Shown here in pieces: positions 39,435 to 60,291 of a DNA stretch of 64,000 nucleotides (the first letter of the stretch is position 1; each line of letters starts with the position of its first letter). The DNA lies in NCBI GenBank assembly GCA_024516035.1, contig CM044960.1, positions 20,600,668 to 20,664,667 of the forward strand. Direction: 5' to 3'. Position numbers and translations under genes: made by a program. The notes below the pieces were generated by a model. The model saw only the letters and a program-made list of their open reading frames with translations. It did no database searches and had not been told where the DNA came from. The stretch comes from Bactericera cockerelli. Taxonomy: Eukaryota; Arthropoda; Insecta; Hemiptera; Triozidae.

Positions 39435-39552
39435 TTCTGCTGGCGAGAAAGATTTCGATGGCAGTGTTTTGCAGAAGATATCTGCGAGAGAAGATGGCTC
39501 GGATTTCTGAGAAGTACCATTTTCCGTGCAAGTGATCACAGTATTTCACAAC
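39435..39552 (-). CDS. rg: Neurobeachin/LRBA exon, PH-like domain
   Basis: 118-bp exon: 39 codons plus one base. It encodes VVKYCDHLHGKWYFSEIRAI followed by FSRRYLLQNTAIEIFLASR. The LHGKW.FSEIRA.FSRRYLLQ motif is diagnostic for the PH-like domain that packs against BEACH in this family. Acceptor TGTTTCAG and donor GTAAGT. The spare A joins CC of the exon at 36161 as Thr (SRTS). The exon for the front of the PH-like domain was not found up to 64000, so the next intron would exceed 24 kb. Confidence 0.95.
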
Positions 39553-40277
39553 CTGAAACAAACAATCAATTAAAAAATGTATAGACATTTTCAGTTGTCA
39601 ATTATTCGCCTTTCATATGTAAAATAGTTAGTCGAGTTATATGTAAACATTTTGACTTGAACCATGTTACAAAGTTCTTGTAACAAGATTCTTTTTTGAC
39701 CTACATCGAAGAACCTTTGGAAAAAGTTGTAGAAAAATACATTTGCGAGAGTGTTGATTCTCGTGATCTCGTGGTACACGTATGTGGTGCATTGAGTGCT
39801 TGCATGTAAATTGGTGTCTCCAACCTATCGTATGCAGGCGCTTCATCTCGTCTACCTTGTGAAAGAAATAGAACGAGCATTTCAATTAGACGGAAGGAAA
39901 TTAAGGGTATAATAAAAATGATTTATTCGCTGACAGAAGAAGACCCGAGGTGGTATTCTAATAGTTCACCAAATCAAGATGATAATATGGGGGAGGGGGA
40001 GGCGCATTAATCAACAAAACAAACATTAAGTCAAGCATGTTACGCGAACACTGAGCCGCAACAAGTGAGGAACAGGAGTCCGTGTTACATTGGTCGTGAG
40101 CCTCCCGCACAGGATCAACATAAGTAGAGGATATTTTATCCTTAGGGTCCAGGTCCTGAACAGGGACCCTAACAGGCCCGGTCAACGACTAGGACTCAAA
40201 GGGTAAAATACTGACATTACCTCGTGTGGGGAGCTTGAGAAAAGTCCTCTGACCAATGAAGTTTGTACCCAGCCTAA
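39553..40277. other. Intron sequence, no exon recognised
   Basis: The minus frame at 39958-40185 has ordinary composition but no motif or credible splice borders. It is left unassigned. Confidence 0.5.
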
Positions 40278-40527
40278 TCTCTATATATAAAACAGAAAAA
40301 AGGACTACTACCTACCTACCTACCTATGTTTTTTGTTTGTCCGGAGTTGTTTAGCCAAAACGGTAAGAGATAGCGAAAAATGTCTCAGAATTGACCCCCC
40401 CAAAACCATTATCGCTTTGTCCAGAAAAATTATAAAAAGTTCAAAAAGGCATTGCTGTCCAGCAGTACGGCCATGCCTTAGTAAATTTGAAATTTAGTCC
40501 CGTTGCAAAACACGGGCAAACGGCTAG
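40278..40527 (+). mobile_element. Mini-Helitron, copy 1
   Basis: Starts TCTCTATATATAAAA after a host A and ends CGGCTAG before a host T. The hairpin CCCGT...ACGGG lies 11 bp from the end. It includes a short TACC microsatellite and the block 'ggcattgctgtccagcagta'. 250 bp, non-coding. Confidence 0.88.
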
Positions 40528-41091
40528 TGAGATATAAAGATGTTGGAAGGAAATTTGATTCCATCATGGAGCATATATTCCTGGGAATTTTTCTTCCTTG
40601 ATGAGTTGGCTTTCTTCTATCCTGTCTTCATCTCTATTCTATTTTGAGAAGACATAGCTTCAAGTCCCAAATTAGAACAAACTGTGCTTCCTAACAGATG
40701 GATATATTTACAATTTCCTTTCCCATGGAGCGAATGGTCCATGATAGAATTGCTCTCATTTCATAGTAACAATAGCCAATGATTGTTTTCTTACTGTTGT
40801 ATGTGAACACATGAAAAGCTTTCACGTGGATCATTCATGTATTAGGTATCTACGCCTTATTTCACTTTTAGAAGAAGCTGTTCTGCAGAAGTGAATGAAT
40901 TATTACTTCAAGTGTCGCTCTAATTTACTACAACTATTAGCGAGTAAAGGGTCTAGGAAGATCCCATTCCATCTCCCTGTCACTATGGTGACAACCATAA
41001 GTACAGGGTGTTTGCTCAAGAGGATACCTGCATGGAAACGTAACAACATCTCATTTGAGTTTATCTTAATGATTCTTTCATATTAGAGAGA

Positions 41092-41322
41092 GCTCTAACC
41101 ATTTTTAATGGTTAGTGTGGTTAACGCGTTGGTTTGGTAATCTATGTAGCGTAGGGATCCGTTGGTTCGAATCCCACCCAATGCACAATTTTTTCCTCAT
41201 TAATTTGAGTTTGTGGCCACATAATAATAAGACTCTGAGGGTTAGGTGGTAGAAAATGCTTTGAGCATTTACCTCGCCTGGTGGTAACCTTCCACTAAAG
41301 AGTATTATTATTATTTTATTTA
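41092..41322 (+). repeat. tRNA-headed SINE, family D
   Basis: Head with A-box-like 'tggttagtgtggttaacgcg' and B-box 'tggttcgaatccca'. Body 'gtttgtggccacataataat' and 'gaaaatgctttgagcattta', ending in ATT repeats. A truncated relative is at 62035-62215. Confidence 0.8.
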
Positions 41323-57452: not shown

Positions 57453-57742
57453 TTAAATAAAAACCTTCATTCGACTCATGTGCAACTTGTTAGATGTGAT
57501 GTGCTGGTACCCCGTCATCTCCAGCACGACTATCTCAGCATTCTCCTCGTCAGATATTTTTGACGCTTCAGCAGAAACAATGCGAGCGTTAATAAAATTG
57601 TTGTCACTCGAGGTGAAACCAGTTGGCGATTTTTTGTCTCTTCCAGAAGAATGCAATATTTGCACATTGTTTCTGCGCGACTTAAACTAGCCTTGGACTC
57701 GTTAAACCAGTTCCTGAGGATTTTTTTCTTTGCCTCAATCAA
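57453..57742 (-). pseudogene. Possible unrecognised coding fragment with a frame change
   Basis: Two overlapping minus frames have composition more coding-like than the surroundings: one has KKILRNWFNESKASLSRAET at its start, the other SAEASKISDEENAEIVVLEM towards its end. A single frame change would join them into about 95 residues. I do not recognise the family and see no trusted splice borders. It could be a worn retrocopy or part of a repeat. Confidence 0.25.
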
Positions 57743-58075
57743 TAAATGTGAAGAAGTTTACAGTTTGACATCACCATTAAATCTGATACCGTCATTACTA
57801 TTCGCCCGCGGAAAAAGTAGAAAAGAATAAATTGATTCGAGATTTATGATTGAGAGAATACGGTGACATGAGAAGGCATGAATCATATTTCATTATTGTA
57901 AATCATGTCCTTGGAGATCTATTAAGAGACTTGAAATGGTTGATGTGGAATTGCATTGAAAGAAAAAGTTGTCCACTTATTTTGTGTAAGTAGCATTTCA
58001 AGTATTGGTTTTGGCCACATAAGAACTGAATATCCACACCAGGAGAACCTCCAAATGAAGTTGTTGTTGTTTTTG

Positions 58076-58322
58076 TAACCAGCTTGGCTGCAGCTGGAGG
58101 GTAGTGATGGTCCTCAGCCAACTTAGGTTAAAAAGTTGGCTCGTCAAGAAAACACATATTTCTATCAACCATCCTGAGATCTTGGGATTTTTCTGTATAA
58201 GCTATTAAACCCTTGGGAAACAACAGATACCCTGGCTTGTTAAGGTTGGCTAATCTGTTTTCTGTTTGTAGTCCTGTAGTGAGACATTGGTCTTCTCCCT
58301 GTTTAACGTCCCCCAGCCAGTT
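58076..58322. repeat. Interspersed repeat 'taaccagcttggct', copy 2
   Basis: Matches 23805-24012 in several blocks ('gtaaccagcttggctgcagc', 'gtagtgatggtcct', 'cttgttaaggttggctaatc', 'gagacattggtc'). The 65-residue minus frame here is part of the repeat. Confidence 0.65.
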
Positions 58323-59194
58323 CAAATGAAGTGGCTAAGTACACTTTTTCTGCAAGATACTATATGATTCTTATAGTCCATAATTTATTTTAGTGCTTCT
58401 TAGTTGACATAGGATTTGACTTTTCGCTCCTGTTATTTGTCTCTTTTAAAGATATGAAGGGCTTCAAAAGAGTAATACTAGCACTATAAACTCCCGCACA
58501 ATACCCGTATAGCTAGTTACTAGAGCCAAAGTTTCTGAAACCATTCCACAAGCATGTTCACTGTACGCATGAGTGAAATTATAGATGTTTTCCAAGTCAG
58601 AGTAAACCTTGCGGAACGATTTTGTTAAGGAGAAGAAAAAATACAACAAACAGATCTGAGAGAGTTTGTCACAAAATAAATTATTGTTCATTGCAAAAGT
58701 TTTTTCTCCGTCTGATGGGGAATACATAGACATGAGTTTAGTGTTTAATGCAGAAGAAACACATAGCCGCCAGAACATAAATAATGCAGCAGAGTGAGAG
58801 GAAGAAGTAACAAAATGGGCGTATGGCTAGAGTTCAACATAAAGCTGTATGAGGCGGAGTCTAAAATCAATGATATCGCGAAAGGGGAATGAAGCCACCG
58901 CAAGGATGTGAACTGAACCCGGCAGTGCTCAGTGCTAGTAGTGAAGAAATTATACTCGGGGTGTCGCGCGTTATCAAACCCAACTGTCAATCAGACAGGA
59001 AAATAACAATGGAAGAAGTGAATTTTTGTGTAAAAGAAAATAATAATATTACATTATTTTCATTATAAAAACAGTTACTTGCGAATTAGAATTGACGTTA
59101 AAATAAACAGTTACGACTTTTTCTCTTTAAAATTTCCCTTGATATAAATAAACCTAGTGATTTTGTTTTGGTTGTTTGTTATAAAGCATTAAAA
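58323..59194. promoter_or_regulatory. Region upstream of mab-21 copy 2 with a TATA-like box
   Basis: TATAAATA at 59143-59150 lies 45 bp before the start codon. That spacing would give a very short leader, so its use as a promoter is uncertain. The minus frames at 58464-58990 are unsupported. Confidence 0.3.
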
Positions 59195-60291
59195 ATGTTG
59201 GTGCCGTCAGATATGATGGCTGCTCAGTCCAAGATCCTGTACCAATTGAATAAGTACTCAGGCGAGCGTGTGCAAGCGAGGAAGGCGAGCATTGCCAAGA
59301 CCATCCGGGAGGTGTGCAAGGTGGTGCAGGATGTGTTGAGGGAGGTGGAGGTGCAGGAGCCGAGTTCATCTCGTCCCTCACGGAGTGCAACGGCAGGTTT
59401 GAGGGATTAGACGTTATAACGCCAACAGAATTCGAAGTCGTTCTCTATCTGAATCAGATGGGAGAGCTAAACTTTGTGGATGATGGCTCACTTCCCGGCT
59501 GCGCTGTCCTTAAGCTGAGCGACGGCAGAAAGAGAAGTATGTCACTGTGGGTGGAGTTCATTACTGCTAGCGGTTATCTCTCAGCTAGAAAGATGAGGTC
59601 TCGCTTCCAAACCCTTGTCGCCCAGGCCTGTGATAAATGCGCTTACAGAGATAGTGTGAAGATGATCGCTGACACTACGGAGGTGAAGCTCAGGATACGA
59701 GAACGTTATATTGTCCAGATCACACCATCCTTCAAGTGCGGCGGCATCTGGCCGCGCTCGGCAGGTCATTGGCCTCTGCCGCAGATCCCCTGGCCGCACC
59801 CCAACCTGGTGGTCGAGACCAAGACTGAAGGGTGTGACCTCTTGTCCAAGGAGTGTGCGGCCATGCAGGGGAAGCAGTCAGCAATGGAGGGCGATGCCTG
59901 GGTCATGTCGTTCACTGATGTGGAGAGCAAACTGCTCATTGGTGGCTGTAGGAAGAAGTGCCTCAGTATACTGAAAACTCTGCGAGATAGACATCTAGAG
60001 TTACCAGGAAATCCAGTGACTAACTATCACATGAAGACACTTCTCCTGTACGAGTGTGAGAAACACCCCAACGAGCTGGAATGGGATGAGTCTTGTCTGG
60101 GCGACAGGATCAATGGCATTCTCCTTCAGCTGATATCTTGTCTACAGTGCAGGAGATGTCCTCATTACTTCTTGCCACATCTAGATCTGTTCAAAGGAAA
60201 ATCACCGAGTGCTTTAGAAAATGCTGCCAAGCAAGTGTGGCGATTAACTCGGGAGCTGCTAACGAATTCCAGAGCTCTGGATAAGCTCTAG
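59195..60291 (+). CDS. mab-21: mab-21 copy 2, intronless, with one single-base deletion
   Basis: Encodes an almost complete Mab-21 protein of about 366 residues, close to the roughly 360 of the family, in one exon as is usual for mab-21. Start MLVPSDMMAAQSK, then IAKTIREVCKVVQDVLREVE. A base is missing near 59362 (an expected Arg codon AGG is AG), after which a frame of more than 300 codons is open to the stop at 60289-60291. It includes CAVLKLSDGRKRSMSLWVEF, QTLVAQACDKCAYRDSVKMI, GGCRKKCLSILKTLRDRHLE, LQLISCLQCRRCPHYFLPH and NAAKQVWRLTRELLTN. The second Met at 59213 lines up with the start of vertebrate MAB21L proteins. With only one lesion, a consensus error is a real alternative to a broken gene. 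Candidate AATAAA at 60520-60525. Confidence 0.93.

What the first reader, a model, noticed from the sequence alone, without database searches (positions are those of the whole stretch)
39435..60291. Two mab-21 copies nested antisense in the neurobeachin/LRBA locus
The BEACH gene runs on the minus strand, and both mab-21 copies lie on the plus strand on its 5' side, with no further PH-domain exon before 64000. In vertebrates MAB21L1 lies inside NBEA and MAB21L2 inside LRBA, on the opposite strand (established knowledge). The same layout in an apparent insect suggests the nesting predates the split of protostomes and deuterostomes, and that mab-21 enhancers in the host introns may hold the pair together.
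Basis: partly seen in the sequence, partly recalled or inferred. Interest (0 to 1): 0.75.

Follow-up and report, generated by a model that had tools for sequence, protein, structure and literature searches.

The report
Two mab-21 genes inside neurobeachin intron
In this psyllid-like insect genome two copies of the developmental gene mab-21 sit, on the opposite strand, inside one large intron of the neurobeachin gene, an arrangement already described across animals; the window also carries an assembly error that shows parts of the locus twice.

Summary
Neurobeachin (NBEA/LRBA/rugose) runs on the minus strand; mab-21 copies A (54530-55630) and B (59195-60291) run on the plus strand. The missing PH exon lies about 46 kb beyond the window (C6:20710243-20710379), so both genes sit in one host intron of 70,023 bases that splits the PH domain at phase 0. 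One gapless 104-kb contig carries both flanking exons and both genes.

Three corrections. (1) The locus is falsely duplicated on the scaffold: the contigs on either side of the 100-N gap at 22001-22100 overlap collinearly by about 75-80 kb, like two unmerged alleles. (2) Copy A is broken in the window (7 one-base indels; B has 1), but both genes are intact 365-codon frames on the other contig. The indels fit the background between the contigs, so A is most likely no pseudogene. (3) The nesting is published: metazoans (2007, 2009) and nematodes (2016).

The nearest full-length named proteins are psyllid. The host intron is probably the one beside MAB21L2 in human LRBA (inferred). Copy A groups within Hemiptera, weakly against its being the second mab-21 of other insects. 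Enhancer capture is untested here.

The parts
39435..39552 (-). Neurobeachin exon, second half of the PH domain (VVKYCDHLHGKW...FLASR); its acceptor (TTTCAG|GTTGTG, phase 0) ends the host intron
35943..36161 (-). Neurobeachin exon, end of PH / start of BEACH
   Evidence: Pfam on joined exons
31173..31285 (-). Neurobeachin BEACH exon (RTYNDLNQ...DLSK)
30472..30636 (-). Neurobeachin BEACH exon starting PIGALNP (low end approximate)
24652..28045 (-). Four further BEACH exons (about 27926-28045, 26435-26599, 25561-25635, 24652-24837)
39553..64000 (-). Host intron as far as the window goes; it continues to C6:20710242 (70,023 bases in all), where the PH-N exon lies
54530..55630 (+). mab-21 copy A, single exon; 7 one-base indels and 7 substitutions against the intact copy on the neighbouring contig (L016:2205-3302)
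59195..60291 (+). mab-21 copy B, single exon; 1 one-base indel and 9 substitutions against the intact copy (L016:7431-8528)
22001..22100 (.). 100-N scaffold gap joining two overlapping contigs (end of contig L, start of contig M)
1..22000 (.). End of contig L: bases 1 to about 17887 align in pieces to the distal part of the same host intron on contig M (C6:20684-20699.5k); the last 4.1 kb have no collinear match

Best explanation
This is the ancient Mab21-in-neurobeachin nested gene pair of animals, in a psyllid-like insect, with the inner gene doubled: two single-exon mab-21 genes lie antisense in the large phase-0 intron that splits the PH domain of the one neurobeachin gene (shown). The two genes most likely make two Mab-21 nucleotidyltransferase-fold developmental proteins from their own promoters, with cis-regulatory elements lying in the host intron; such dependence is what is thought to keep the pair together in vertebrates (inferred here by analogy, untested). 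The scaffold shows the BEACH exons and both mab-21 genes twice because two allelic contigs were laid end to end without being merged (strongly supported), and the broken frames of the window's copies are residual consensus errors (strongly supported).
For: Nesting: contig M (C6:20622768-20726751, no Ns) holds the BEACH and PH-C exons, mab-21 A and B, the upstream PH-N exon, and exons back to position 1803 of the recalled NBEA probe. Exons for probe positions 1294 down to 110 follow in order to C6:20801973, and the WD40 exons lie at C6:20532541-20538606, all minus strand. Pfam: PH_BEACH, Beach, DUF1088, NBCH_WD40, Mab-21, Mab-21_C. Of 19 Beach matches in the assembly, 14 are the two copies of this locus; the other 5 are on C2, C5, C9 (two) and at C6:16.2M and were not typed further. 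False duplication: the end of contig L and the start of contig M are collinear over about 75-80 kb, the match beginning 1.2 kb inside M and ending 4.1 kb before the end of L; the start of the later contig R likewise matches M at 20706060-20721453, near M's end; neither BEACH copy belongs to a complete gene, L lacking the upstream half and M the WD40 half. Errors: where the contigs are almost free of substitutions (6 in 9.3 kb) there are 37 one-base indels, 31 of them in runs. Intact copies.
Against: The enhancer-capture step has no direct evidence here. No reads were available to show half coverage over the doubled block. In 26 of 39 two-kb bins the blocks differ by 2-5% in substitutions and in 3 by 5-11%, high for alleles though not unheard of in insects (recalled). 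The request for further mab-21 copies in the genome did not complete. Allele or error cannot be told apart for any single indel without reads.
Confidence: 0.93

Rival explanations
1. The doubled block is a real tandem duplication inside neurobeachin, giving a gene with two PH/BEACH modules and four nested mab-21 genes.
For: Two collinear blocks on one scaffold, mostly 80-86 kb apart.
Against: The match starts 1.2 kb from the start of contig M and stops 4.1 kb from the end of contig L, beside a 100-N gap, and the start of contig R overlaps M in the same manner; 8 kb are at least 99.85% identical per bin in substitutions with error-like indels, as expected of one haplotype assembled twice.
Confidence: 0.04
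2. Copy A is a decaying pseudogene of mab-21.
For: Seven frame-breaking indels in the window copy.
Against: The copy on contig L is an intact 365-codon frame; all seven are single-base indels, and the background between the contigs is about 4 one-base indels per kb; proteins 89-90% identical to A exist in Diaphorina citri and Cyamophila willieti.
Confidence: 0.03
3. Copy A is the ortholog of the second mab-21 of beetles, moths, flies and ants (here 'class II'), i.e. the pair arose once before insects diversified. (Compatible with the main explanation.)
For: Published statement that the four further insects looked at all have two copies, as has Drosophila (PMC1784063). A plus class II is not rejected on residues 1-115 (p-AU 0.267; 0.589 in the 34-row set) nor on residues 116-365 (0.143) of the 32-row set.
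Against: Over the full protein A groups inside Hemiptera (99/98) and A plus class II is mildly rejected (p-AU 0.028); it was rejected more strongly while two suspect gene models were in (0.0003 in 52 rows with one of them or both; 9e-7 on residues 116-365 of 34 rows). A plus B is not rejected (0.347; 0.325). A has a long branch.
Confidence: 0.35
4. The nesting itself is produced by a misjoin of two loci.
For: The 264 kb first put together hold three 100-N joins.
Against: Both flanking exons and both genes lie in one gapless 104-kb contig, and the overlapping contig L shows the same order from the BEACH exons to the mab-21 pair.
Confidence: 0.01

Closest known systems
MAB21L2 in LRBA and MAB21L1 in NBEA of vertebrates
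   Same: mab-21 gene antisense inside a neurobeachin-family host; probably the same host intron (inferred: from the psyllid acceptor three exons of 118, 219 and 113 bases = 150 codons run to the DLSK|PIGAL boundary, the size of the in-frame LRBA deletion beside MAB21L2 in PMC11511899).
   Different: One inner gene per host in vertebrates, two here; conserved elements near MAB21L2 were tested in fish and frog (PMC11511899 passages), none is known here.
mab-21 in sel-2 of nematodes (PMC4994411, passages)
   Same: mab-21 antisense in the largest intron of the neurobeachin ortholog.
   Different: The passages speak of one inner gene; nesting lost in Pristionchus.
mab-21 / CG4766 pair of Drosophila (PMC1784063; PMC11042752; passages)
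   Same: Two mab-21 genes near each other.
   Different: In the fly the pair lies about 800 kb from neurobeachin; the fly and worm genes have introns in the coding part, both copies here are single-exon; orthology of A to either fly copy is not settled.

Membership tests
Mab21-Nbea/Lrba nested gene pair | Inner gene encodes a Mab-21 protein | tested here: met
   Pfam Mab-21 and Mab-21_C for both intact copies; PDB 5eog E=6.6e-172 for B
Mab21-Nbea/Lrba nested gene pair | Host is neurobeachin (DUF1088, PH_BEACH, Beach, WD40 in order) | tested here: met
   DUF4704 was sought by genome search but not answered, and Pfam on the part joined did not list it
Mab21-Nbea/Lrba nested gene pair | Inner gene lies in a host intron on the opposite strand | tested here: met
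   Flanking exons end at C6:20640219 and 20710243, mab-21 between them on the + strand, one contig
Mab21-Nbea/Lrba nested gene pair | Same host intron as in vertebrates | tested here: inconclusive
   150-codon arithmetic fits but no vertebrate gene structure was read and the NBEA letters are recalled
Mab21-Nbea/Lrba nested gene pair | Inner-gene enhancers in host introns | not testable with these tools
   No second arthropod genome or expression data; scans for mab-21 in viral and prokaryote contigs confirmed none
Allelic false duplication in an assembly | Overlap runs from contig end to contig start across a gap | tested here: met
   Within 1.2 and 4.1 kb of the ends; similar at the M/R join
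Allelic false duplication in an assembly | Half read depth over each copy | not testable with these tools
   no reads held

The most novel reading that the evidence does not exclude
Copy A arose within Hemiptera, separately from the second mab-21 of other insects, and stayed inside the same neurobeachin intron: independent doublings captured by one regulatory block, which would give a natural test of enhancer capture.
Probability: 0.4. Interest if true: 0.4.

Novelty: already known. Interest (0 to 1): 0.2.

Why it matters
It adds a hemipteran with two nested mab-21 genes to a known deep microsynteny, among insects, some of which have lost the nesting. It also warns that gene counts from this assembly will mislead here: the scaffold shows four mab-21 copies (two of them with broken frames) and two partial neurobeachin copies where there are most likely two mab-21 genes and one neurobeachin.

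Tried and rejected
Gene conversion between insect mab-21 paralogs: residues 1-115 and 116-365 gave conflicting trees in 34 rows, but after dropping two probably chimeric predicted proteins (Melipona P0126, Dacini P0057; chimerism is my inference) the C-terminal conflict went (class II as one clade p-AU 0.281). The class II label was set by eye from N-terminal residues, so its N-terminal support is partly circular. Dropped. The trees use rows that I picked (49, 50, 32 and 30 proteins besides A and B) from up to 131 fetched proteins, themselves from capped lists of 120 per search.

Constraint around mab-21 from fewer insertions: one search shows fewer allele-specific stretches of 150 bases or more near the pair, but about 9 kb of that part is a near-identical block, so this is no evidence of selection. 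Dropped.

Related mab-21 loci: viral contigs none; genome contigs 4 pattern matches, none confirmed.

Organism: nearest named full-length proteins psyllid; 565 Mb is near the 567 Mb given for Bactericera cockerelli (PMC12203342 passage), a guess only.
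Full report
What the window shows. The window is C6:20600668-20664667 of a 565-Mb assembly in 1032 contigs. On the minus strand, eight exon matches covering the second half of the PH domain and the BEACH domain lie between window 39552 and 24652. On the plus strand are two single-exon mab-21 genes, A at 54530-55630 and B at 59195-60291. B matches the solved MAB21L1 protein (5eog) at E=6.6e-172. A and B are identical at 764 of 1016 aligned DNA positions in the coding part; the other matches shown between their surroundings are short and near chance (E 0.029 and up; listing cut), so the doubling is old.

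Where the rest of neurobeachin is. Pfam on translations joined from exon matches gave PH_BEACH (2e-28), Beach (1.7e-117), DUF1088 (6.2e-66) and NBCH_WD40 (2.7e-40); both intact mab-21 copies gave Mab-21 and Mab-21_C. The host intron runs from the donor after ...NTDPE (exon end 20710243) to the acceptor before VVKYCDHLHGKW (20640219), phase 0, 70,023 bases. Contig M, 20622768-20726751, has no gap and holds both flanking exons and both mab-21 genes.

The false duplication. The family search listed 19 Beach matches, 14 of them two sets of exons of this locus on C6 about 85 kb apart. Self-comparison showed the contig left of the 22001-22100 gap and the contig right of it to be collinear, 20539k-20618.6k against 20624k-20699.5k, with insertions on either side. 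Of 39 two-kb bins with aligned bases, 26 are 95-98% identical in substitutions, 3 lower (down to 89%) and 10 higher (up to 100%); in several bins, above all near the BEACH exons, half or more of the bases do not align. The start of contig R (20740936) overlaps M at 20706060-20721453, and a 14-kb contig between two gaps shares 2.7 kb with the very end of M. Neither BEACH copy belongs to a full gene. The simplest reading is one neurobeachin gene drawn from two haplotypes laid end to end; the first 17.9 kb of the window then are the other allele of the same intron.

The broken frames. On contig L both mab-21 genes are open frames of 365 codons. Against these, window copy A has 7 substitutions and 7 one-base indels, B has 9 substitutions and 1 indel, over 1095 bases each. 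At window 41101-50400 the two contigs differ by 6 substitutions, 37 one-base indels (31 in runs of two or more) and 4 longer indels: about 4 one-base indels per kb, which is how unpolished long-read consensus looks (recalled). Copy A is thus most likely broken by the assembly, not by decay.

Kinship of the copies. Each protein search lists the best 120 of 530-533 matches. By score a 517-residue amniote MAB21L1 entry ranks first for A and B, covering 72% of the query at 73% and 79% identity. The best full-length hits of A are psyllids (Diaphorina citri 90%, Cyamophila willieti 89%). B is 99% identical to an unnamed full-length protein and to a Diaphorina protein over 87% of its length. In a careful tree of 32 rows (34 less two suspected chimeras) A sits within Hemiptera (99/98), A plus the class II proteins of other insects is mildly rejected (p-AU 0.028) and A plus B is not (0.347); on either part of the protein alone A plus class II is not rejected (residues 1-115 0.267, 116-365 0.143). 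Before the suspect rows were dropped, A plus class II gave 0.0003 (52 rows). A has a long branch; its origin stays open.

What is known. PMC1784063 (passages) states that MAB21-type genes are in conserved synteny, in an intron of NBEA or LRBA, in all metazoan taxa it used except Drosophila, and that the insects it checked have two copies. [quoted passage not shown] PMC4994411 (passages), on 20 nematode genomes, reports mab-21 antisense in the largest sel-2 intron in all nematode clades, with loss in Pristionchus. Elements upstream of MAB21L2 inside LRBA are described in PMC11511899 (passages). Searches of the held library for mab-21 with neurobeachin gave 5 papers and with microsynteny added none; none of those listed is on psyllids by title.

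Same host intron. From the psyllid acceptor, three exons of 118, 219 and 113 bases, 450 in all or 150 codons, end at the DLSK|PIGAL boundary, phase 0 at both ends. PMC11511899 reports an in-frame 150-residue loss of four LRBA exons, part of PH and BEACH, by a deletion that begins 19 kb from MAB21L2. I infer that the host intron is the same; no vertebrate gene structure was read, and the exon counts differ (four against three).

Mechanism. Shown: anatomy and intact copies. Strongly supported: allelic contigs and consensus errors. Inferred: both genes are transcribed on their own and draw on elements in the host intron. Untested: any enhancer.

Noticed in passing
window 41101-50400: About 9 kb where the two overlapping contigs are almost free of substitutions (6) while the neighbouring bins differ by 1.5-4%; probably the same haplotype assembled twice.
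   Followed up: partly
window 4322-5008: Long CA-rich repeat that leaves open frames on both strands; not genes, by eye.
   Followed up: no
window 13936-15033: Stop-free minus-strand frame of 365 codons; no Pfam family above its cut-off. Looks like a mobile-element remnant, by eye only.
   Followed up: partly
window 24839-24872: Run of 34 G on the plus strand (C on the minus) just before the last BEACH exon in the window; its length may be an assembly artefact.
   Followed up: no
C6:20726852-20740835: A 14-kb contig between two gaps shares 2.7 kb with the end of contig M (94%), a further sign of unmerged haplotypes.
   Followed up: partly
proteins P0029 and P0061: Class I and class II mab-21 proteins that both list 2 contigs and a longest contig of 589353 bases, possibly a linked pair in another insect.
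   Followed up: no
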